64,000 bases of DNA, taken from Asterias amurensis (Eukaryota; Echinodermata; Asteroidea; Forcipulatida; Asteriidae). Position 1 is the stretch's first letter. Every line of letters begins with the position of its first letter. Below, piece after piece: positions 1,232-45,205 of the stretch. The translations under genes and the position numbers were made by a program. The notes beneath the pieces are model-generated. The model had not been told where the DNA came from and made no database searches. It saw only the letters and a program-made list of their open reading frames with translations. The DNA lies in NCBI RefSeq assembly GCF_032118995.1, contig NC_092661.1:14243506-14307505 (forward strand), in the 5' to 3' direction.

Positions 1232-1950
1232 AGAGAATGCTACTCAATGCTCAAGCATAGGGACAGAATCTACACAGTGCTAAAGCATAGGGGAAGAATC
1301 CTACACAGTGCTAAAGCATAGGGACAGAATCCTACTCAATGCTAAAGCACAGGGCCAGAATCCTACTCAATGCTAAAGCATAGGGACAGAATCCTACACA
1401 GTGCTAAAGCATAAGGACAGAATCCTACACAGTGCTAAAGCATAGGGCCAGAATCCTACTCAATGCTAAAGCATAGGGCCAGAATCCTACTCAATGCTAA
1501 AGCATAGGGCCAGAATCCTACTCAATGCTAAAGCATAGGGCCAGAATCCCACTCAATGCTAAAGCATAGGGCCAGAATCCTACACAGTGCTAAAGCATAG
1601 GGACAGAATCATACACAGTGCTAAAGCATAGGGCCAGAATCCTACTCAATGCTAAAGCATAGGGCCAGAATCCTACTTAATGCTAAAGCATAGGGCCAGA
1701 ATCCTACACAGTGCTAAAGCATAGGGCCAGAATCCTACTCAATGCTAAAGCATAGGGCCAGAATCCTACTCAATGCTAAAGCACAGGGACAGAATCCTAC
1801 ACAGTGCTAAAGCATAGGGACAGAATCCTACACAGTGCTAAAGCATAGGGCCAGAATCCTACTCAATGCTAAAGCATGGGCCAGAATCCTACTCAATGCT
1901 AAAGCATAGGGCCAGAATCCTACTCAATGCTAAAGCATAGGGCCAGAATA
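1232..1950. repeat. 31-bp minisatellite, ~23 copies
   Basis: The unit is about CTACTCAATGCTAAAGCATA plus GGGCCAGAATC. Two unit types are interleaved: ACTCAATG (usually after GGGCC) and ACACAGTG (usually after GGGAC). Copies are highly alike, so the array is young or homogenised. There is one single-base deletion, in the copy near 1876. Confidence 0.95.
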
Positions 1951-10785: not shown

Positions 10786-12204
10786 GAGCATCTTTGTCCC
10801 AGAATTAAAAACAAATTCAACAAAATTAACACATCAATTGCTTACAAATCAGATATTTATTACAAAATCTGAAACTAGTTGTGTAAAAAAAAGGTTACGA
10901 CAGTATAGTTGTAGTTTTAGATTTTGTCATTAGATAAAATTTAAAATGCAAGCTGAGTGAGGAGATCATGATAGCCAGTCTAGTAGGTTCCAGAAATGTT
11001 TTATGTAGTGTGCCATATTGACCCCTTGCACGCGTGTCACACGCGGCAACTGATGCCACGCTCACCATGTTGGTGGGCAGTTGGTGGCCTAAAATGCGCA
11101 CTTCGCTGCATAACGCACAGCATACTCTATGCATAGAGTTATATATGAAAACGCACAGTGAAATTGCCCACCAGTATGGCGCATTCAACAAGATTTTTCT
11201 GATGATAACGTCAGGTGAAAGACTCCATTCAATCATTAGGGACAACATGTATTTGAAATTTTATAAAACCTTTTTGTAGAGATGCTATTGTAGATATATT
11301 TGTAATTTTGGCCATCACACACAAAACAATTATAAAATTTAACTTTTTACAGCACAAACCGAAAATTAAGGTATTAATTTACTTCTTAATTTTTACACAG
11401 GTGCACATCTACACTGAATCCCTTTATCAGTGCAGCATACATTGTACATTAAGTGTAGAAAGTGAGTCAACAAGTGGAACGATGCACAGGGTATCAACAC
11501 CATGCTACGGACTTCACTGACATAAAACATGAGCGTCATCAGTAACACAACACCCGATGCCGTCCCAGTGAAAGACTAATTTGTCACGCCGCCGGGCCTC
11601 CTCATGATGTATACACAGACAGAGCATCGGGGCAGACATGGAGGGGTAGGAGATGATTTATTTGGTAATCCATGGAGGAAATGGTTAGCGTAGATCAGCT
11701 GTAGGAGACGCAATCAGCACAAGGCGTGATTTGGAGGCTGTCATGTGTGTTCAAACCAAACATGAATGCTTCTACTTCTAGCTAGGAAGCCATCATTGCT
11801 CACTACATGAGAAATAACAAGTGGTTCGTATTTTTGTACAGTTTGATGACCTATCAAAAAGTGTGCTCTTTATAAAAAGGGCAAAGCTGCAATCGAAATA
11901 CTCACCTGTGACCTTGTGCCAATGTAAAACATTAAGATGTTAATTAGAAAGTTTCCCGTGTGTTGTGCCAATTGATGAGTGCAATTCCTGCCGAGGTTCT
12001 GTATGCCAGTGTGATGTTATGCAGGGCGGTACAGAACTACAGTCTTGCTGCTGTTACTGGAGTTGGGTACGTAACCTGTCTGATGTCCAGATACACTCAG
12101 GATCCCCGAACATGGTTGCCATCACATCTACTTGTTAAGGTCTCGGCAACAAGTTATTTATTAACAACAATGCTTGCATTGTTTTTTCCTGTGGCGATGT
12201 GGCG
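10786..12204. other. 5' flank of the GPCR gene
   Basis: No coding exon recognised. Any 5' UTR lies here. A frame at 11960-12208 has no domain and is probably upstream non-coding. I cannot place a promoter. Confidence 0.5.
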
Positions 12205-13380
12205 ATGACATTCCCAATGGATGCCACGAGTACAGCAAGCAGTAGCGACGACCCTGGTGGCAGCAGCTTGATCGGTTCCACGTGCATCATAATAAATCAA
12301 ACCAGCACGAGCTCCGAGGAGCCTGAAAGCACGGTGTCTCTACCGGTGTCACTACCAATGTCGCTTGGCGCAGTCATCCCGCTGACAATCCTCATGGTCT
12401 GCATGATCTTTATCAGCATTCTGGGAAACAGCATCGTGTGTCTGATTGTGTACCAGAAGCCGGCGATGCGGTCCGCGATCAACCTGCTCCTCGCCAACCT
12501 GGCCTTCGCTGACATCATGGTGGCGCTATTCTGCATGCCCTTCGCCCTGATCACCTTACTCCAAGGGGCGTGGATCCTAGGGCAAGTCATGTGCGAGATT
12601 ACAGCCTTTCTGTATATCTTTTTTGTCATGGAAGCAACTTTCATTCTGGCCACGATTTCGGTTGACAGGTACTTCATCATCGTGCGTCGGAAAGACAAGC
12701 TGAACCCCCACCGAGCCAAGATTGTCATCGGTGTTTCCTGGCTGAGCAGCTTCCTGGTGGCCCTCCCGCCCGTTGTGGGATGGTCCCACCTTGGGTACTC
12801 GCCCGGCCAGGCGCAGTGTCGAGTCCAGACGCCCATCAACCCTGCCGACAAAGCCTACATCGTCTGTCTCTACCTAGCCATTTTCTACATTCCGTGTGCC
12901 GCCATGTCCTTCTCGTATTTATTCATACTAAACACGGTGCGCCGCAACTCCCTACGTGTGCAGAACCACCCGGAGTCTCTAAGCATCAGCCAGGCAAACA
13001 AGCTTGGCCTGACGACTCTGCCTCGCCCGTCTCGCGTCAACATGGACATGAGTTTTAAAACCCGTGCCTTCACCACTATCCTTCTATTATTCATCGTCTT
13101 CATTATGTGTTGGGCGCCCTCCGCCATCGGCATGTACGTCGAACTCTTCTCGGAATCCCACAGGATGAACCCTTTTGCCGAGGCCGTGATCGTGTGGCTG
13201 ACCTATCTCAACTCAGCCTTCAACCCGATCATCTACTGCTGGCGCATCAAAAAATTTCGCGAGGCTTGCCGGGAGTTGGCTCCCAAGACTTTTCGCCTTC
13301 TGCCCAAGCTGCCCGGGCGCACGCGCAGAAGGATTCGCCCCAGTGCAATGTATGAGTGCAATGAACAATCGTCAGTATGA
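12205..13380 (+). CDS. GPR63-like: Class A (rhodopsin-like) GPCR, GPR63/GPR45 (PSP24)-like
   Basis: Single-exon receptor of 391 aa, expected in the plasma membrane. What is seen: an Ser/Thr-rich N-terminus with an N-glycosylation site at Asn31; seven hydrophobic segments; Asn75 in TM1; the LAFAD motif with Asp103 in TM2; Cys130 and Cys205, positioned for the TM3-ECL2 disulfide; DRY at 154-156; CWAP at 302-305 in TM6; NPIIY at 350-354 in TM7. Family evidence: blocks such as QKPAMRSAINLLL, RRKDKLNPHRAK, FKTRAFTTIL, YCWRIKKF and the tail RRIRPSAMYEC closely match vertebrate GPR63/GPR45 as I remember them. The length is also near the family norm. I chose the ATG at 12205 because the frame is open back to a stop at 12136 with no earlier ATG; Met5 is an alternative start. 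The vertebrate relatives are orphan receptors linked to lysophospholipids, so the ligand here is unknown. Whether it corresponds to GPR45 or GPR63 singly, or is pre-duplicate, needs a tree. Confidence 0.95.
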   Translation: MTFPMDATSTASSSDDPGGSSLIGSTCIIINQTSTSSEEPESTVSLPVSLPMSLGAVIPLTILMVCMIFISILGNSIVCLIVYQKPAMRSAINLLLANLAFADIMVALFCMPFALITLLQGAWILGQVMCEITAFLYIFFVMEATFILATISVDRYFIIVRRKDKLNPHRAKIVIGVSWLSSFLVALPPVVGWSHLGYSPGQAQCRVQTPINPADKAYIVCLYLAIFYIPCAAMSFSYLFILNTVRRNSLRVQNHPESLSISQANKLGLTTLPRPSRVNMDMSFKTRAFTTILLLFIVFIMCWAPSAIGMYVELFSESHRMNPFAEAVIVWLTYLNSAFNPIIYCWRIKKFREACRELAPKTFRLLPKLPGRTRRRIRPSAMYECNEQSSV

Positions 13381-16039: not shown

Positions 16040-16425
16040 TTTAAAGGCAGTGGACACTATTGGTAATTACTCAAAATAATTATCATCATATAAAACCTTT
16101 CTTGATTACGAGTAATTGGGAGAGGTTGATAGTATAAAATATTGAGAAACAGCTCCCTCTAAAGTGACGTAGAGTTCGAGAAAGAAGTAATTTTCCACGA
16201 ATTTGATTTCGTGACTTCAAGTTTAGAATTTGAGGTTTCGAAATCAAGCATTGGAAAGCACACAACTTCGTGTGACAATGGTGTTTTTTCTTTCATTTTT
16301 ATTTCACAACTTCAACGACTGATTGAGCTCAAATTTTCACAGGTTTGTTGTTTTATGCATGTTGAGATACACCAACTGTGAAGACTAGTCTTTGACAATT
16401 ACCAATAGTGTCCACTGTCTTTAAA
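16040..16425 (+). repeat. TTAA-ended MITE, family A
   Basis: Nearly complete: TTTAAAGGCAGTGGACACTA at the left, TAGTGTCCACTGTCTTTAAA at the right. A central hairpin (TTTCGAGACC-type arms in other copies) is partly eroded here. Confidence 0.9.
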
Positions 16426-16807
16426 GCCAATGGACACTACTGGTAATTGTCAAAGACCAGTCTTCTCACTTGGTGTACCTCAACATATGCATAAAATAAC
16501 AAACCTGTGAAAATTTGAGCTAGATTGGTCATCGGAGTTGCGAGATAACTATGAAAGAAAAAACACCCTTGTCACACGAAGTTGTGTGCGTTTAGATGGT
16601 TGATTTCGAGACCTCAAATTCTAAACTTGAGGTCTCGAAATCAAATGCATGGAAAATTACTTCTTTCTCGAAAACTACTCCACTTCAGAGGGAGCCGTTT
16701 CTCACAATGTTTTATACTACCAACCTCTCCCCATAACTCGCTACCAAGTAAGGTTTTATGCTAATAATTATTTTGAGTAATTACCAATAGTGTCCACTGC
16801 CTTTAAA
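16420..16807 (-). repeat. TTAA-ended MITE, family A, inverted and sharing a TTAA with the previous copy
   Basis: Head-to-head with the copy ending at 16425; the two share one TTTAAA. The reverse-oriented interior contains GACCTCAAATTC and its inverse. This suggests insertion into the TTAA at the edge of an older copy. Confidence 0.9.
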
Positions 16808-17369: not shown

Positions 17370-17697
17370 TTTAAAGGGTCTATGTAACTTTTGTAGGACA
17401 ACAAACACAATGTCCACAGATTTACACTAAACTTACACAGTTTGAAGATAATGATAGTAGAAAGCTTCCCTGAAAATACTACGTGCTGAGGTGCTGTAGT
17501 TTTGGGGAAATGAGTAAAACAATGAAAATTATTTTAACCATTTACAAACGTATTTTCATGACATTGTTTTACTCATTTCTCAAAAACTACAGCACCTTAG
17601 TATGTAAGATTTGAAGCTTTCCACTATCATTATCTTCAAACCCTGTAAGTTTAATGTAAATCTATGGACATTTTGAAAAAGTACCCAAATCCTTTAA
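17370..17697. repeat. TTAA-ended palindromic MITE
   Basis: Left TTTAAAGGGTCTATGTAACTT; right GTACCCAAATCCTTTAA. The arms mirror across ~330 bp (GTAAAACAATG versus CATTGTTTTAC near the centre). The long arms are ~80% alike. Confidence 0.75.
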
Positions 17698-21949: not shown

Positions 21950-22733
21950 ATTTAGAAATTTGTTGATGTATTAGAAGTCCTCGACCCTGTGATTAATTTG
22001 TTGTTTTTTAATGCGGGCAGATCTGGCTGGCAGAGCTGGTTGGCATAGCTATAATGACAACTACAATAACGGTCATAAACAGCTATGGTGAAACGTGTTT
22101 TTATTGTATAGTTTTCTGAACTCTTACAAAAGATGGTCAATTAATGTGGCGTCACGTATCTGGGGCAGTGTCGAGTGGGTGCGGGAGGAGGGAGGGGGCG
22201 GGTGGGGGGGGGGGCAGCAGAACTCCCTTATTGTCCATACCGTGATACAACACATCACTATAGATTCATTTGTTTGGTTAAGTTATCTGATATGTCTGAC
22301 GTCAATTCCCATCAGGATAATGTTTGGCGTTTCAGTGACACTGCGAGACGTTAGTATCAAAACATATGACGGTGGCCCTGAGGGGACATGAAACATGATA
22401 CACATTCAAGCCGGAATTTACAGCTTCCTCGTAGGAGAAAATGCCTTGGTGCCCTCAACACTTTAAAAACGAAGCACAGTCAAACCGACTGGGGTAGCGT
22501 GTGTTTTCAACGCTGACCAAGTTGTCATTACTAACCTCAATCGTCATTTGAGAATAAGTGTGTATGCCTGGCTTTTGTCAACGTATTTTGGCGGGACATG
22601 CAAACACGGTTCATCTGCCATTTTGTTTTCTGTGACGATTTAAATGTTGCTGTGCCCCCTAGATACATTATGCTTCGGGATAGTTTCGATTATATAATAT
22701 GACCAGTGCAAACATTTTATGCGAGCTTAGGCA
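21950..22733. other. Spacer with a G-rich tract
   Basis: No gene seen. A purine/G-rich tract at 22181-22215 (four or more G-runs) could form a G-quadruplex. A perfect TGACGTCA lies at 22297. Confidence 0.5.
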
Positions 22734-22983
22734 CAGGGCACAACTTCATAGAGCTGCTAAGCACAAAAATTTGCTTAGCATGAAATTTCTTTCTTGATAA
22801 AAAACAGGATTACCAACAAAATTTCTGTTTGTTGCATAATTGCTTGTGACTAGTAATCAGCTGTTGTTTGCTTATCCTGAAAATCACATGGACATTTGGT
22901 TGGTAATCCTGTAGTTATCAAGAAAGAAATTTCATGCTAAGCAAATTTTCGTGCTTATAGCAGCTCTATGAAATTGGGCCCTG
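22734..22983. repeat. Palindromic repeat family C
   Basis: AGGGCACAACTTCATAGAGC at the left, CTCTATGAAATTGGGCCCTG at the right, with mirrored GCTAAGCACAAAAATTTGC and AAATTTTCGTGCTTA arms. Confidence 0.9.
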
Positions 22984-24101
22984 GGCACGTTTTTGGTACT
23001 TGCAAAGGCCAGTATTTGCACGCAGCCCAAGATAATTATGCTAAAAATAACAAACCTGTGGAAATTTAGGCTTATGTAGGTCATCGAATTGGCAAGAGAG
23101 TAATAGTGGAAAAACACAACTGTTGCATTATTTTAAGTTTATGAATACTAGTCAAGGAACTGAGCTTTTAAGATTTTAACATAAGACAGATAGAGAGGGT
23201 GATGATTCATCTAAGCTATTTATGATTGCTCTTTAGGGTGATTTTATGAAACCTCCTTCTTCAAGTCTCGATCATGACATAAATGCATATGGACCATCTC
23301 CATCACGAATTAATCTGCATCACCGTTGATGTGTTGCAGTTTACAAAGTGAAATTAAAAAGTGTTGAATTATTGGTTGTCGGGTCAATTTGTCTATTAGT
23401 AGTAACAGTTTGTATATTTTCAACTGTCTATGTGAACCTGTGAATATGCCACTGATTACTTTACTAGGAAATAAATTACGTCGGGCCATGGGCGTCAATC
23501 AGGGGAGGGACAGGACTGGTACCCCCTCCAACTTTTGAAGGGTGGGGACACAAAATCAAATGTCCCCGTGTATTTGACCACCTTTATATTGAAGCTTAAG
23601 TATTGTACTGTGTAAAACCAAACCCTTTATCCCGCCATCATCATCAATCCTGGGGGAAACGGATGACACCACTTTTTGAAGGGTGAGGACAATAATCAAA
23701 ATGTCCCTTCTCATAATTGGCCTAAGATTACACCCCAGTAGGGCATCTAGAATGTAGTTGGGGGAGGGGGGCATTATTGAACGTGTAGTTGAATACTAGA
23801 ACAAAGTCTGAATGAATAAAAGACGGTACATCCTCATCCATGTATACTATAAAGTGGATATTTTGCAAAGAAAGTCCAGTATCGATGTGTTTGCTTTCAA
23901 TGCATTTTATTGCCATGGAAATTATAATTTTATCAGTTAAAAATTTAGCAAAAGTTACTTTCACTGTTGTATTATAACTCGAGTAACGATTGATTAAGCA
24001 AAGGCCCATTTACCCTTGGAGGTTAATGCATTTGTTAAGATCGATATGGTCTTCATTACAGCTTTTATAGTATTAGTCCATAATCTGCTTAATAAACACT
24101 G
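22984..24101. other. Spacer with a short imperfect direct repeat
   Basis: No gene seen. Part of a family A-like interior at ~23040-23120 (TAACAAACCTGTGGAAATTT). ACTTTTGAAGGGTGGGGACA near 23530 recurs as ACTTTTTGAAGGGTGAGGAC near 23670, each followed by AATGTCCC. Confidence 0.5.
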
Positions 24102-24487
24102 AAAGGCAGTGGACACTATTGGTAACTACTCAAAATAATTATTAGCATAAAACCTTACTTGGTGACCAGTAATGGGGAGAGGTTGATGGTACAAAACATT
24201 GTGAGAAACGGCTCCCTCTGATGTAACATAGTTTTCGAGAAAGAGGTAATTTTCCACGAATTTGATTTCGAGACCTCAAGTTTAGAACTTGAGGTCTCGA
24301 AATCAACCATCTAAAAGCACACAACTTCGTGTAACAAGTGTTATTTTTCTTTCATTATTATCTCGCAACTCCGACTACCAATCGAGCTCAAATTTTCACA
24401 GGTTTGTTATTTTATGCATATGTTGAGATACACCAAGTGAGAAGACTGGTCTTTGACAATTACCAAATAGTGTCCACTGTCTTTAAG
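24102..24487 (+). repeat. TTAA-ended MITE, family A
   Basis: GAAAGGCAGTGGACACTATT at the left, AGTGTCCACTGTCTTTAAGG at the right; a perfect 21-bp-arm hairpin at the centre (arms of the type TTTCGAGACCTCAAGTT). Confidence 0.9.
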
Positions 24488-24665
24488 GCTGAGTCACACT
24501 GCAGCGATAACGAAAACGATAACGATCGCGACCCCAAGAGAACGCATTCTATTGGTTGAATGAACGTGTGCGTTTTCTGCGTAGAGCAATTCAACCAATA
24601 GAATGCGTTCTCCTAGCGTCGTGATCGTTATCGTTTTAGTTATCGCTGCAGTGTGACTCGGCCTT
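24485..24665. repeat. Foldback MITE, GATAACG-rich arms
   Basis: Left AAGGCTGAGTCACACTGCAG with repeated CGATAACG; right mirrors it and ends CTGCAGTGTGACTCGGCCTT. Inner arms AATAGAATGCGTTCTC and inverse. Overlaps by three bases the end of the preceding MITE. Confidence 0.85.
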
Positions 24666-25248
24666 CACACCAGTAAGTGGTTATAATCGCGCTTCTAGCG
24701 TGTTGGAAATTTTATACTTATGTACACCTACAAAATTTGAATTTGAAATATTAAAATGACAATCTTCGTCACCCGAAGGTCACATTACAGAGTCGTTACA
24801 TAGTTAAAAAAAAAATAGATAAGACATAAAAATAACACAGTGCTAATTTTTACTGCAAGGGTAGCGGCGATGCGCACATCATTGGAGCAGAGGGGGGATC
24901 AAAAAGGTGTTACAAACGCCATTTCAGATTAAGTTTTTTGGACGATCTGCATTCATTATACAAGTTGAATATTTGGGTTTATTCTGTATTTCGCCACGTG
25001 TGATGCTGATTAGAGTGTTACTCACTTTATTGCTATGCTTAAAAGATGTTTAATTGAAATGAAAAACCCCTCACGTCATGGTATGATCCAAATCGTTCAA
25101 TAAACTTAAGGCCAGACTGCATCAATAACGTTGCAGTTTACACGAAGTAACAGGTCTATCAAGATTCCATCTGAGAACAAATCAACTGAGTTTACATTTG
25201 AAACGAAACCAAAAACTTGTCTTGAACGTCGATGCGATCACAACAGCC
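24666..25248. other. 5' flank of the F5/8C gene
   Basis: No other gene seen. Any promoter and 5' UTR of the downstream secreted-protein gene should be here; no convincing TATA box or initiator could be picked. Confidence 0.5.
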
Positions 25249-25848
25249 ATGAAAAGTGTTGTACCTTTCACCGCCGCGATACTCGCATTGGTGTTCTACG
25301 ATGCATCAGCGACTGAGACGAGTTGCACCATCGGATCTATAGTAAAAGGGAGCATTTTCCTACCATACCAGCAACACGCACTGATCGGTCATACGTTTCA
25401 AAATCAATCAGGGACGGGTCGGATCAAGTGTATGATGCTTTGCTGGAGGCAAAGTCGCTGTATGTCATTCAATCACAATGACATCAGTGGCATCTGTCAG
25501 CTCAACGACGCCAGCAAGGAGGAATTCCCAGAGAGTTACAAGCAAGATGATGGTTTTTCATACTTCGGTGACTCATCAAATGAAGCCGAACCACTCCCTG
25601 AAGAAACGACGATGACAACCAAGACAAATCAAGAAAGTACTACCACCCAAACACAAACAGCGACACCGAAGACGACAACCAGAGCATACAAAGAAACAGC
25701 TACCACCCAAACCCAATCAGCAACCACGACGATGACAACCAAAGCAGACCAAGAAACAGCTACAACCCAGACCCAAACACTAACAACGACGATGACAACC
25801 AAGACAGAACAAGGAACACCCCAAGCCCAAGCGGCAACAACTGAACAT
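25249..25848 (+). CDS. Exon 1: signal peptide, apple/PAN-like domain, start of mucin stalk
   Basis: Encodes residues 1-200. The chosen ATG at 25249 gives MKSVVPFTAAILALVFYDASA, a typical signal peptide. An upstream in-frame ATG would put 17 polar residues in front of it. The cysteine region (C26, C61, C65, C71, C83) contains LIGHTF and RCMSFNHN, which resemble apple/PAN modules common in marine deuterostomes. From about residue 117 there are roughly four copies of a ~20-aa Thr/Gln-rich unit (a TMTTK phrase, later TTQTQ), mirrored in the DNA by a 60-bp period at about 25600-25830. This in-frame minisatellite is likely length-variable and O-glycosylated. The donor is CAT|GTAAGT, phase 0. Confidence 0.85.
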
Positions 25849-28800
25849 GTAAGTTCCCCCTTTTCCAATTTAGGCAAAATTTTCACAGGTTGTTGTTATT
25901 TTTTATTAATTGTGAGATACACCAAGTGGGAATATTGGTCTTGACAATTTACCAAAGGGAAAAACTAGTCTTAATTTAGGACTAGTCCTAACTTAGGACT
26001 TGTCCTATGATATATTGTAAACATAAGGCTAGTCCTAACTCATCCTAAATCGAGATGAGACAAGACAAGACAAGACAAGACCAGTCTTAACTCTTTGTGA
26101 AATCCTTCCAGAGTCTTTAAACACTGCAAGATTTGTTTGCGAGTTTAAAGGGACACACCGGCTTCGTTGGGCTATTTTGGTCTACAAAAAAAGACTAAAA
26201 TATGACTCCAAAGGTCTTTTAGGAATGGAGAAGAACAGTCCCTCAAAGAAAACACAAAATTTTGCCGTTTTCGAGCTTTAAAAAGAAGAAGAAAAAAAAG
26301 GTCACGTTAGAACTAAAAAGCAGAAGAACCAAAATGTTTAATTAATGGGGCTTATAGTAATCGATTTATATCCATTTACTTCAATAGATCACCGAAGTAC
26401 CTGTGGAACTTTCAACAACACCAATATTCGACACAACTTCAGCAGAAGCAGGTAGGAAACGGGGCTGGCTGAGTGTGTATTACCGTTTGAAGCGGAAAGC
26501 ATGACTTGGGAATTGTTTTTGTTGTTCAACAAAAATTCAACAAAACATGTTTGCAGATAATTTTTTATCTCCTTCATTCAGGAAGCATGGGGTTTTATTA
26601 ATAGTGCTATCCTTCTTTGTTGTTGAACGTTACAGGTTTTGACCGTGTCTTTCATGCGTAACTAGTTTGTGCTCCTTCAATTTATGTATCGGTTTTCTTT
26701 TGTTCACAGATATGTATGAATAAATTCAGGGGGGGGGTCTCCATCCAACAAGCTTGCTTTAAAGGACCTCCCCCTTAATCAATTAAGGTTAAGGTTATAC
26801 TATGAACTATGAATGTGTGTCTGGATCATAGTATACAAATATTGACTGCTTCGAGTGCTATGGTTAAATCTATGACTCCCGAGGAGCTATCTATTTTCCC
26901 GAGGCGAAGCCGAGGGAAAATAGAACGCTACGGGGATCACCGAGGGAGTCATAGTTTTCGGAGCTATCTATTTTCGGAGCTATCTATTTTCCCGAGGCGA
27001 AGCCGAGGGAAAATAGAACGCTACGGGGATCACCGAGGGAGTCATAGTTTTAACCATTGCACGAGTAAAAGCAGTCAATATTTGTTTTATAACACCCCAA
27101 ACATTTCTTCTAAATATTGTACTATTATTATTAAGTTACAGACCTGAATGCTACAATCCACGGACGACGCGAATACAAATTGCAAACACTTTTACTGTGC
27201 TGCATGTAGTGTCGTGCAATCCGAAATGGTTACAGACTATTAATTTATCATCCTCGTACACTCAACGGACGTCTGGGTACTGCACGCCGTGTGCTAGTCT
27301 TCGGACTAGCGCACGGCAAACCAACGCACTATCACACGGCAGTCATCTAGCAAAACTAAGACATGTCATGTGACGCGCTCTAAACCAATAAGAAGGCAGA
27401 ATACTTGTAAGGGGTGTTATAATACTCATACGTAGCTATCCATTGAAAAAATTAATCAATCTCAAAAACAGTTTGTGGAACTTCCGTGTCGCAGGATATA
27501 TACCATATGATGGAACAATAATTGTTTAATGTTCGATATTTCACCAGTCGATACTGAAGGTCCTACAGTGTACTGCCCCGAAGATCTGTTCGGCTTAACC
27601 AACGACAGCGATACTCCCGCTTCTATTTGGTGGTGGACGTCTGCGAATGACAACGAGGTAAACTACTACCCTGTCACTTGCAGCGACGACGCCGAAGGTA
27701 TGGCTGTCGTTTCGGGTGACCTCTTCAAAGCAGGTACCACCAACGTCACTTGTACGGCGTGGGATGCAGCCGGTAACCCTGGACACTGTACATTCCTAAT
27801 AACTGTGACAGGTTTGTAAGGAAATCAAAACCAATGCTCATTGCTCACTGTTACATAATAAAATCAAGAAGCACTTTTCTTTGTAGTTGGAAAATTCAAA
27901 ATTTTCATTTTACGTGTTCATCATTTCATTTGCATTTAGGTTGTGTTCATTCAGTGTAAAGATGTAGCCCTCCTCATTTGGACGCCATTCATTTATATTT
28001 CTCGCAATTCTGGTCAATGTTGTTCCTGCATCAATAAGCAACCATGCATGCTGTCATCTCCCCATCTTCTTCTCTGTCTACCTCTTTTCCCTTTCCCTGG
28101 CCTCCCCAATCCGTTATTGTTTTTCATATGTTGTAATTTTTTCGTGCAGTGTGTCCAGCCTTCCCCATTATAGCTTATTTTTACGTTTTGGTGCCGACCA
28201 AATGCTTTGACATTGCGACGAATGCTTTGTCGTTGCCGATCGGTTATAAGAGCACCGGATTCAGGCTCAGTGTTTGATCAGCAGACTGTGGTTCGAACCC
28301 CGGTCGTGACGCTAACTTGTGTCCTTGAACAAAACACTTATGCTTCTCTCCACCCAGGGGTATAAATGGTACCTGTGAGGGCAGAGATGGTTCTTGTGAT
28401 TGATTTAGCCGAGGAGCTCATTTGTGTAGGCACGCTGTACAGAGTGGTTCTTTGCTTTTACTATTATCATTGCCTTGTGGTTAATTATCACTTCACCTAG
28501 ATATCCAATTAAGTGACTGCGGTATCTGCCATCGATTTCTTTACAAACTGAAGAAAAAAAACGTAAAAAAATACGTCCAGAACAGCAGCATTAGTAGTCT
28601 TGGCCCAAGGCGTTAGTCCTCGATTTGATAGTGTACTACGCTCAGTTGTAAATCGCTTTCCCTTGACTGGAAAGCTTGACTGGCGAGCTTGAAATCTTGA
28701 CTGTGTTTGGCGATAAACTAGTTTGGCGATAGCTGTTCGCCAGTCAAAGATGGTGCGCTTTAGCGATTTTCAACACATGAGCGTAGTAAACACTCAGAAT

Positions 28801-41890: not shown

Positions 41891-42076
41891 TTGTAATACC
41901 TTGTTAATTATCAATTATATAAACTTACTACGATAAAAAATATCAACAGATTTGAATGTTCTTCACTTCATGCTTGGTAAGATGACAAAGTTTAAATGGC
42001 AAACAGTGTCTGGAAACAATGATTGAAAAACTCTTTCGTGCACAATTTATTTATTTTTGGGGTTGAACAAAGAATT

Positions 42077-42148
42077 GACTAGAGTGGGATTCGAACCAAC
42101 GACCTCCGGATTAATGTGCCGGCGCTCTACCAACTGAGCTATCTAGCC
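42077..42148 (-). pseudogene. tRNA-like unit (minus arm)
   Basis: 72 nt with cloverleaf spacing: TAGCTCAGTTGGTAGAGC (D arm, A box) and GGTTCGAATCC (B box). The anticodon position reads ATT, but base 33 is C instead of the near-universal U, one anticodon-stem pair and one T-stem pair are broken. It is probably a tRNA-derived repeat, not a working tRNA. Confidence 0.6.
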
Positions 42149-42168
42149 CTATATTGGCGCCAATATAG

Positions 42169-42240
42169 GGCTAGATAGCTCAGTTGGTAGAGCGCCGGCA
42201 CGTTAATCTGGAGGTCGTTGGTTCGAATCCCACTCTAGTC
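42169..42240 (+). pseudogene. tRNA-like unit (plus arm)
   Basis: Same 72-nt layout: acceptor GGCTAGA with TCTAGTC (one mismatch), D arm, anticodon arm CCGGC-ACGTTAA-TCTGG, variable AGGTC, T arm GTTGG-TTCGAAT-CCCAC. The anticodon position reads GTT (Asn type), again with C33. It differs from the other arm at two bases, both in the anticodon arm. Confidence 0.6.
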
Positions 42241-42529
42241 AATTCTTTGTTCAACCCCAAAAATCATTTACAAATTACCTAGTCAGTTTCCCTTGTGGTA
42301 CATATTGATATACAATTTATTTTAGTGATAAATTGATAGTGGACACATGAAACAGCTTATTTAAAAAAAAAAATTGCAAAAGGCGACTGCCCCAGTCCCA
42401 CAATATTATGCGATCACCATTTTTTACGAAGGGATGTTAAACTTTTTTCGGCCCATGAAAAAGTTAAGTTATGATTTTCTTTGAGCTTGTTTGGCTGCAA
42501 ACTTAAAACTGTAGAGGATGGTTTATGTC

Positions 42530-43655: not shown

Positions 43656-45205
43656 GAGGCACTAATCTGCCCTCAACCGTCACCCCACCCTGACTGAATG
43701 GTGAGGCACTAAGTTGCCTTCAAACATCACCACCATTCTTCCTACATGTAGTCCTGGTGAGTGGTGAGGCACTAATTTGCTTTCAACTGTCACCACCACC
43801 AATACTTGTTCATGCTAGATCTCATAGAAAGGTGAGGCACTACTTTGCTCTCAACCATCACCACCACCCTTCCTAGACTTTCTAGATCTCAAAGAATGGT
43901 GAGGCACTACTTTGCCCTCATCGTCACCACCACCCTTCCTAGTCCTTCTAGATCTCATAGAATGGTGAGGCACTACTTTGCCCTCAACCGTCACCACCAC
44001 CCTTCCTAGTCCTTCTAGATCTCATAGAATGGTGAGGCACTACTTTGCCCGTCACCACCACCTTTCCTAGTCCTTCTAGATCTCATAGAATGGTGAGGCA
44101 CTACTTTGCCCTCAACCATCACCACCACCCTCCCTATTCCTTCTAGATCTCATAGAATGGTGAGGCACTACTTTGCCCTCAACCATCACCACCACCCTTT
44201 CTAGTCCTTCTAGATCTCATAGAATGGTGAGGCACTACTTTGCCCTCAACCGTCACCACCACCCTCCACAGTCCTTCTAGATCTCATAGAATGGTGAGGC
44301 ACTACTTTGCCCTCAACCATCACCACCACCCTTCCTAGTCCTTCTAGATCTCATAGAATGGTGAGGCACTACTTTGCCCTCAACCATCACCACCACCCTC
44401 CCTAGTCCTTCTAGATCTCATAGAATGGTGAGGCACTACTTTGCCCTCAACCGTCACCCCCACCCTTCCTAGTCCTTCTAGATCTCATAGAATGGTGAGG
44501 TACTACTTTGCCCTCAACCATCACCACCACCCTTTCTAGTCCTTCTAGATCTCACAGAATGGTGAGGCACTACTTTGCTCTCAACCATCACCACCACTCT
44601 CTGAGTCCTTAAAAATGGTGGGGCAGTACTCTGCCCTCAACCGTCACCACCACCCTTCCTAGTCCTTCTAGATCTCATAGAATGGTGAGGTACTACTTTG
44701 CCCTCAACCATCACCACCACCCTTTCTAGTCCTTCTAGATCTCACAGAATGGTGAGGCACTACTTTGCTCTCAACCATCACCACCACTCTCTGAGTCCTT
44801 AAAAATGGTGAGGCAGTACTCTGCCCTCAACCGTCACCACCACCCTTCCTAGTCCTTTTAGATCTCATAGAATGGTGAGGCACTACTTTGCCCTCAACCG
44901 TCACCACCACCATTACCTATTCATGCTAGGGTTCATAAAATGATGAGGCACTACTTCAACCGTCACTACCACCCTCCCTAGTCCTTCCAGATCTCACTGA
45001 TTGGTAAGGTACATGTACTACTTTGCCTTCAACCGTCACCACCACCAATACTTATTCACGCTAGATCTCATAGAATGGTGAGGCACTAATTTGCCATCAA
45101 CCGTCACCACCACCAATACTTAGTCATGCTAGATCTCATAGAATGGTGAGGCACTAATCTGCCCTCAACCGTCACCCCACCCTGAATGGTGAGGCACTAA
45201 TTTGT
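43656..45205. repeat. 67-bp minisatellite, ~23 units, with a 190-bp higher-order repeat
   Basis: The unit is about GGTGAGGCACTACTTTGCCC, TCAACCGTCACCACCACCCT, TCCTAGTCCTTCTAGATCTC, ATAGAAT. The central units are most alike; edge units are more diverged and shorter. Around 44494-44870 a three-unit block (67+67+56) is repeated at a 190-bp period. No frame persists because 67 is not a multiple of three. Confidence 0.95.

What the first reader, a model, noticed from the sequence alone, without database searches (positions are those of the whole stretch)
42053..42264. Near-perfect palindrome made of two head-to-head tRNA-like genes
Two 106-bp arms with only two mismatches meet without a spacer. 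Each arm holds a whole 72-nt tRNA-like unit. Both mismatches fall in the anticodon arm, so the D, T and acceptor regions are identical between arms. Divergent pol III promoters would give two identical non-coding RNAs or, by read-through, a long hairpin RNA. Both units have C33 where true tRNAs have U33, which argues against decoding and for a tRNA-derived mobile or structural role.
Basis: partly seen in the sequence, partly recalled or inferred. Interest (0 to 1): 0.75.

Follow-up and report, generated by a model that had tools for sequence, protein, structure and literature searches.

The report
Palindromic tRNA retroposon, Penelope-type insertion
The palindrome is one copy of a sea-star "jumping" sequence with a tRNA-type promoter, and its mirror-image shape is most likely the footprint of the unusual two-sided way in which Penelope-type retroelements copy RNA into a broken chromosome.

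Summary
In detail: 42053-42264 is a near-perfect palindrome of two outward-facing tRNA-like units. It lies inside a 259-bp insertion (42053-42311): inverted arm, direct arm, and a 47-bp tail on one side only, flanked by an 11-bp target duplication. The family is dispersed through a 491.5-Mb genome that fits the sea star Asterias amurensis (2254 matches to a T-arm 25-mer, control 0). Insertions start from two fixed RNA positions about 48 nt apart: one gives the inverted end, the other the direct end, and the two copies meet at variable points. Of 116 dissected clusters 56 show both ends, always one of each; none show two alike. Full palindromes are a minority (3 of 57 on chromosome 1). This is the published signature of Penelope-like elements (PLEs); three PLE pairs read at both ends in the same genome obey it. 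Best reading: a non-autonomous, SINE-like parasite with a tRNA-type promoter, mobilised by PLE machinery. Not shown: the cognate PLE (no matching tail among 22 loci fetched, mostly one PLE family) and any RNA. The arms' two mismatches are CpG-hotspot changes.

The parts
42042..42052 (.). left copy of the 11-bp target-site duplication ACAATTTATTT
42053..42158 (-). inverted arm (tRNA-like unit plus its 3' flank); outer end is start site 1, position T106 (CCCCAAAAAT)
42076..42148 (-). tRNA-like unit, anticodon ATT, C33
42087..42097 (-). B-box-like sequence GGTTCGAATCC of the inverted arm (consensus recalled, read by eye)
   Evidence: sequence
42130..42141 (-). A-box-like sequence TAGCTCAGTTGG of the inverted arm (consensus recalled, read by eye)
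   Evidence: sequence
42152..42165 (.). joint of the two copies (TATTGG-CG-CCAATA), 2-nt microhomology
42159..42264 (+). direct arm (tRNA-like unit plus 3' flank)
42169..42241 (+). tRNA-like unit, anticodon GTT, C33
42176..42187 (+). A-box-like sequence TAGCTCAGTTGG of the direct arm
   Evidence: sequence
42220..42230 (+). B-box-like sequence GGTTCGAATCC of the direct arm
   Evidence: sequence
42265..42311 (+). 47-bp tail (family positions A1-A48) present only on the direct arm; outer end is start site 2 (TTGATAT)
42312..42322 (.). right copy of the 11-bp target-site duplication

Best explanation
This is one copy of a non-autonomous retroposon family with a tRNA-derived promoter that inserts the way Penelope-like elements (PLEs) do. 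Inferred cycle: an RNA containing the tRNA-like unit and the 48-nt tail (transcribed by pol III, or read through from a tandem neighbour) is bound by a PLE reverse transcriptase-endonuclease. A staggered break is made in AT-rich DNA. Both broken ends prime DNA synthesis inside the RNA rather than at its 3' end. One end starts at T106, just past the tRNA; the other starts about 48 nt further 3', at A48. Each copy runs towards the RNA 5' end, and the two are joined head to head at short microhomology. Depending on how far each ran, the product is a full palindrome (as here), a lopsided inverted pair, or a single piece. Shown by sequence: family, ends, one-of-each rule, target duplications, shared private variants between arms. 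Inferred: the enzyme, the RNA, pol III transcription, the order of steps.
For: Dispersed family: 2254 matches to a T-arm 25-mer with <=2 mismatches (reversed control 0) and 1393 to a tail 31-mer with <=3 (control 0). Fixed ends: outer end of the inverted piece at T104-T106 in 60 of 64; direct end at A47-A48 in 22 of 60 (range A34-A62). One-of-each rule: of 116 clusters 56 are T106+tail, 0 T106+T106, 0 tail+tail, 54 have one recognised end, 6 none. Target duplications >=9 bp in 29 of 43 two-ended elements versus 6 of 855 mismatched controls; these 29 are 84% A+T. Arms of one element share private variants: in 31 pairs 20 differences from the consensus are shared (127 are not) versus a control mean of 2.8, max 12 in 200 draws. 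Microhomology at 46 joints averages 1.70 nt versus 0.68 for random joins. PLEs are present in the same genome, with RVT_1 plus GIY-YIG by Pfam in 2 of 3 ORFs scanned and RVT_1 only in the third. In the three P1 PLE head-to-head pairs read at both ends, one end lacks and the other carries a 36-bp tail, with target duplications of 10-12 bp read by eye; a mini P1 palindrome in L021 shows the same, read by eye. Published: the tail lies between two internal RT start sites, and both target strands are cleaved and extended (PMC11167929, parts 1-2 of 4 read); inverted pLTRs, a 31-bp tail optionally on one of them, TSDs and palindromic junctions in rotifer Penelope (PMC3846280, passages).
Against: No PLE with the same tail sequence was found; but only 22 loci (L118-L139) fetched at or near PLE matches were read, of 648 candidates, most of them one family (P1), and tails were delimited for P1 only. 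No hammerhead was found (Rfam on 5 loci), although PLEs often carry one. The RNA must include sequence upstream of the tRNA (about 200 nt and more in some copies), so a plain pol III start at the tRNA does not explain every copy. The tail is 48 nt, against 31 (rotifer) and 36 (P1). No RNA evidence exists here. The RNA region containing the two start sites shows no unusual fold (z = +1.74). Tie counting in my alignment may inflate microhomology, and the 46 joints include the duplicate locus L083. Four of the 20 shared variants come from the duplicated pair L082/L083.
Confidence: 0.82

Rival explanations
1. An ordinary tRNA-SINE mobilised by a LINE, with twin priming giving the inversions.
For: tRNA-like unit with A- and B-box-like sequence, target duplications of up to 16 bp, direct-only copies with a ragged 5' end (14 of 57). 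A LINE partner was not searched for.
Against: The second start is at one fixed site (60 of 64 at T104-T106), inverted pieces occur in 43 of 57 census elements, and the two pieces can overlap over the whole tRNA. The same end rule holds for PLE copies in this genome. What twin priming by LINEs looks like is recalled, not tested here.
Confidence: 0.1
2. A MITE or fold-back DNA transposon whose terminal inverted repeats happen to be tRNA-like.
For: Inverted arms and dispersed copies.
Against: Asymmetric tail on one side only, variable inner joint, target duplications of 7-16 bp rather than one fixed length, and 34 of 57 census copies with one recognised piece only.
Confidence: 0.03
3. An inverted duplication of a real tRNA gene kept for a function, or a structural long-hairpin RNA locus.
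For: Very stable hairpin if transcribed through (-209.5 kcal/mol for 258 nt); arms nearly identical.
Against: More than two thousand matches to the arm 25-mer, many copies with their own target duplications; C33 and anticodon-stem mismatches argue against decoding; the mismatches are CpG changes as in the rest of the family.
Confidence: 0.03
4. An assembly artefact at a contig join.
For: None found.
Against: No N in the window; 21 other places in the genome align over at least 205 of the 212 query bases; target duplications flank this and other copies; the matching published assembly used HiFi reads from ~15-kb fragments.
Confidence: 0.01

Closest known systems
Penelope-like elements, Penelope/Poseidon type (PMC11167929, PMC3846280)
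   Same: Head-to-head inverted pieces, short tail on one inverted end, target duplications, palindromic junctions, AT-rich targets, tandem copies; two internal RT start sites flanking the tail.
   Different: Far too short for an RT-endonuclease ORF, no hammerhead found, tRNA-type promoter, tail 48 nt rather than 31-36, unit only about 312 bp.
tRNA-derived SINEs (LINE-mobilised)
   Same: Non-autonomous, tRNA-derived A and B boxes, many short copies, target duplications.
   Different: Two fixed starts and inverted pieces instead of a single 3' end; no poly(A) or simple-repeat 3' end in the ends printed; body sequence upstream of the tRNA.
Helenus and Ajax, TRIM LTR elements with tRNA or 5S sequence in their LTRs (PMC10886601; abstract start in listing and two passages seen)
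   Same: A small-RNA-gene promoter captured by a different class of retroelement.
   Different: They are LTR retrotransposons; here the arms are inverted with a one-sided tail. The word Penelope does not occur in that paper's main text.
Retrozymes (PMC7229834, abstract start and passages)
   Same: Small non-autonomous retroelements of animals.
   Different: Retrozymes depend on hammerhead ribozymes; none was found here (5 loci).

Membership tests
Penelope-like elements | ORF with telomerase-like RT and GIY-YIG endonuclease | tested here: not met
   The element is 259 bp, far too short for such an ORF; PLE ORFs with RVT_1 and GIY-YIG exist elsewhere in the genome.
Penelope-like elements | Head-to-head inverted pieces with a short tail on one of the two ends | tested here: met
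   56 of 116 clusters show both ends; all 56 have one T106 end and one tail end. P1 PLEs: 3 of 3 pairs read at both ends.
Penelope-like elements | Target duplications at AT-rich sites | tested here: met
   29 of 43 with >=9 bp, 84% A+T; control 6 of 855.
Penelope-like elements | Tandem or partial-tandem copies (pLTR) | tested here: met
   Unit T-A-T in L009, L011, L013; 3.7-copy 318-bp array in L129. A minority of the copies read.
Penelope-like elements | Hammerhead ribozyme (common, not universal) | tested here: not met
   cmscan of L001, L005, L009, L011, L014 at E<=1 lists no hammerhead.
Penelope-like elements | Sequence shared with an autonomous PLE's 3' end or tail | tested here: inconclusive
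   Reference compared with L118-L139: clear matches in L129, L132, L137, L138 only. Those in L129 and L132 look like neighbouring copies of the tRNA family; L137/L138 are unresolved. Most loci are one PLE family.
SINE | Internal pol III promoter from a small-RNA gene | tested here: met
   ARAGORN and Rfam tRNA calls (2, 15); A/B-box-like sequence by eye; no TTTT in the sense reference. Transcription itself not tested.
SINE | Single 3' end shared with a partner LINE, or poly(A) | tested here: inconclusive
   Two start sites, no poly(A) in the ends printed; a LINE partner was not searched for.
MITE | Symmetrical terminal inverted repeats and fixed-length TSD | tested here: not met
   One-sided tail, variable joints, TSD 7-16 bp.
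Helenus-type TRIM | Two direct LTRs as termini | tested here: not met
   Termini are unlike each other (CCCCAAAAAT inverted, TTGATAT direct) and the arms are inverted.
Functional tRNA-Asn gene | U33 and intact anticodon stem | tested here: not met
   C33 in both arms; one mismatched pair of the anticodon stem by eye; arm differences at nt 34 and 41.

The most novel reading that the evidence does not exclude
Penelope-like elements have SINE-like parasites of their own: short tRNA-promoter RNAs that supply nothing but a promoter and two internal start sites. Because every two-ended insertion seen uses one start site on each side, a single RNA in the integration complex may prime the two broken DNA ends at two different, assigned positions. 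The family would be a natural in vivo map of PLE integration.
Probability: 0.6. Interest if true: 0.72.

Novelty: new variant of a known kind. Interest (0 to 1): 0.58.

Why it matters
Small-RNA-gene promoters are known to have been captured by LINE parasites (SINEs) and by LTR elements (Cassandra, Helenus, Ajax). My paper searches (capped listings with abstract starts, open-licence library only) turned up no case for the third class, the Penelope-like elements. How PLEs integrate is still largely open. A dispersed family with more than two thousand arm matches records, in each intact copy, both ends, the joint and the target of the event. That a tail sits on one of two inverted ends was known for PLEs; the strict one-of-each count (56 of 56 two-ended clusters) adds to the in vitro report, which saw no strand difference in start site. 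Such units can also inflate tRNA counts: the published annotation lists 14,926 tRNAs.

Tried and rejected
MITE reading: my first hypothesis (note), dropped when the tail proved one-sided and the target duplications variable. Hammerhead or retrozyme reading: no hammerhead in Rfam, 5 loci. Conserved RNA fold around the start sites: none beyond chance. Autonomous partner carrying the same tail: 20 exact-tail copies on C1 lacking a listed exact 25-mer were fetched; all 20 proved to be this family, two of them (L092, L096) tail only by BLAST, and none was seen joined to other shared sequence in the ~700 bp fetched; these stretches were not scanned for ORFs. The loci L118-L139 gave no PLE sharing the tail. 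Matches in L129 and L132 look like neighbouring copies of the tRNA family; L137 and L138 remain unresolved. A genome-wide palindrome count was asked for and never answered.

Weak points of the counts: loci L001-L044 were mostly chosen by a palindrome query and L085-L104 by the tail, so only L045-L084, L105-L117, L005, L006, L022 and L023 (chromosome 1) are a census, and that of exact 25-mers only (65 listed; 63 used, the 2 in L083 dropped as a duplicate of L082). The census fit forces the two anchor ends; unforced BLAST ends are. L061 is scored inverted-only because of window size, but two-ended. Rows dropped: L083 (kept), L002-L004 as repeats of other loci, L024 as mitochondrial. Of the nine P1 loci L119-L127 only three pairs were read at both ends; L119, L123 and L124 were read at one end only.

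Full report
What is there. The window lies on contig 14 of a 491.5-Mb, 23-contig genome. Contig 23 is 16,427 bp; the 10 kb of it that I read (L024) holds mitochondrial genes with ND1 and ND2 inverted relative to COX1 (genes named by eye), the sea-star order as I recall it. The palindrome is real: 106-bp arms, 2 mismatches, centre at 42158/42159, two divergent outward tRNA-like units.

The palindrome is part of a larger, asymmetric insertion. Right of the second arm comes a 47-bp tail (42265-42311) that the left side lacks, and the whole 259 bp is flanked by ACAATTTATTT on both sides. The two arm mismatches are changes at CpG sites relative to the family: arm position 44 G>A on the left, 51 C>T on the right. 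Over 162 arms CpG positions differ from the consensus in 125 of 1726 letters (7.2%), other positions in 268 of 13,010 (2.1%).

The family. A 212-bp search scored 40 of 1910 candidates; besides the window's own copy, 21 places aligned over at least 205 of the 212 query bases. A 25-mer from the arm occurs 2254 times with <=2 mismatches (control 0); a 31-mer from the tail 1393 times with <=3 (control 0). The reference RNA is [A, 206 nt][T, the 106-nt tRNA arm][A', the first ~48 nt of A again]; tandem T-A-T copies with a ~312-bp period occur (L009, L011, L013), and L129 holds an array of 3.7 identical 318-bp units.

The rule of ends. Cut into pieces, 110 of 116 clusters have an inverted piece ending near T106 and/or a direct piece ending in the tail. 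The outer end of inverted pieces is at T104-T106 in 60 of 64; direct ends are at A47-A48 in 22 of 60, the rest spread over A34-A62. Of the 116 clusters 56 have one of each, 0 have two T106 ends, 0 have two tails, 27 tail only, 27 T106 only, 6 neither. The inner joint is variable, from inside the tail to beyond the preceding tRNA unit, with 0-6 nt of microhomology (46 joints, mean 1.70; random joins 0.68). In the chromosome-1 census (57 elements, 63 exact 25-mers) 23 have both pieces, 20 only the inverted, 14 only the direct; 3 carry two whole tRNA arms. So the palindrome in the window is one outcome among many.

Insertion by reverse transcription. Target duplications of >=9 bp (mode 13) are seen in 29 of 43 two-ended elements, against 6 of 855 in mismatched controls; they are 84% A+T. 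In 9 of the 43 no duplication of 7 bp or more was found. The two arms of one element share private variants: 20 shared differences in 31 pairs (127 unshared) against a control mean of 2.8 (max 12 of 200 draws), 4 of the 20 from the duplicated L082/L083. The simplest reading is that both arms were copied from the same source RNA.

Why Penelope. A Penelope-like enzyme cleaves and extends both target strands and starts reverse transcription at two adjacent sites inside its RNA; the stretch between them is the genomic 'tail' (PMC11167929, parts 1 and 2 of 4 read). Rotifer Penelope copies have inverted pLTRs, a 31-bp tail optionally on one of them, short TSDs and palindromes at the inverted junction (PMC3846280, passages). 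Of three ORFs scanned, two have RVT_1 plus GIY-YIG and one RVT_1 only by Pfam; that one is of the P1 family, where the motif KVYVGETGR can be read by eye in L122 and L127. The P1 copies compared are mostly 98-99.8% identical. In the three P1 head-to-head pairs read at both ends, one end stops at CTTCTATAT and the other carries 36 further bases; a small P1 palindrome in L021 does the same, next to a tRNA-type element (read by eye). The architecture is the one seen in the tRNA family, with unrelated sequence.

How it probably works. Shown: two fixed starts, one of each in the two-ended clusters, TSDs, joint microhomology, shared variants. Inferred: the RNA is made from the tRNA-type promoter or by read-through of tandem units (the sense reference has no TTTT); a PLE protein binds it; each broken end primes at its own site; the two cDNAs are joined. 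Internal starting frees the RNA from needing a particular 3' end, which suits a pol III transcript that runs into flanking DNA. The in vitro study reported no strand difference in start site, so the strict one-of-each pattern here is an addition, and suggests one RNA serving both ends.

What is missing. No PLE with the same tail was found among the 22 loci fetched at PLE matches (L118-L139), but most are the P1 family, in two (L134, L135) neither the P1 3' end nor the tRNA family was matched, and tails were delimited for P1 only. Four of the 22 (L129, L132, L137, L138) contain a piece of the tRNA family; whether this is more than chance was not tested. There is no hammerhead in five loci and no expression evidence. 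These keep the enzyme assignment at an inference from architecture. By membership it is not a PLE (no ORF, no hammerhead) and not a standard SINE (two fixed starts, inverted pieces); it works like a PLE insertion with a SINE-type promoter.

Literature. Searches (capped listings; open-licence papers only) gave no report of a tRNA-promoter element with PLE-type ends. The nearest parallels are Helenus and Ajax, LTR elements with small-RNA sequence in the LTRs (PMC10886601; listing and two passages).

Noticed in passing
G000 C8, C16, C14, C13, C6, C7 (e.g. C8:17217326-17266617); C14:14185215-14230228 and 14581891-14701932 lie on both sides of the window: PLE-type RT matches recur at about 6.7-kb spacing in arrays on six chromosomes; L133 shows the repeat also contains large inverted parts.
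   Followed up: partly
L129 4001-5174: 3.7 identical 318-bp tandem units of the tRNA family inside a (TA)n tract directly beside a PLE 3' end; possibly a source of multi-unit transcripts.
   Followed up: partly
L137 5-652 and L138 98-747: Two loci share 654 aligned bases at 94.8%, from a P1 PLE 3' end to the start of a tRNA-family piece; duplicated locus or composite element, not resolved.
   Followed up: partly
L004, L007, L009, L010, L011, L014, L020, L021, L022, L034, L037, L040: Pieces similar to the P1 PLE 3' end (E<=1e-3) occur in these fetched tRNA-family loci; chance level not tested.
   Followed up: no
L021 480-760: Mini P1 PLE palindrome with one-sided tail and 13-bp target duplication ACTAAAGAACAGT, read by eye, next to a tRNA-family element.
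   Followed up: partly
window 16040-16807; also 17406-17675, 22731-22986, 24485-24665: Other self-inverted repeats; the ~390-bp repeat at 16040 recurs at several places in the window and matches sequence just beyond a P1 PLE end in L122.
   Followed up: no
window 1234-1949 and 43656-45183: Tandem arrays with periods of about 62 and 67 bp (offsets in the self-comparison).
   Followed up: no
window 12139-13377 (+): Stop-to-stop frame of 413 aa matching rhodopsin-type GPCR (PF00001, 5.1e-56).
   Followed up: no
window 25129-25941 (+): 271-aa frame with a PAN domain (PF00024, 1.7e-07).
   Followed up: no
genome annotation, PMC10625585: 14,926 predicted tRNAs are reported, and no word beginning with SINE occurs in that paper's main text; tRNA-like retroposons such as this one may inflate the tRNA count.
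   Followed up: no
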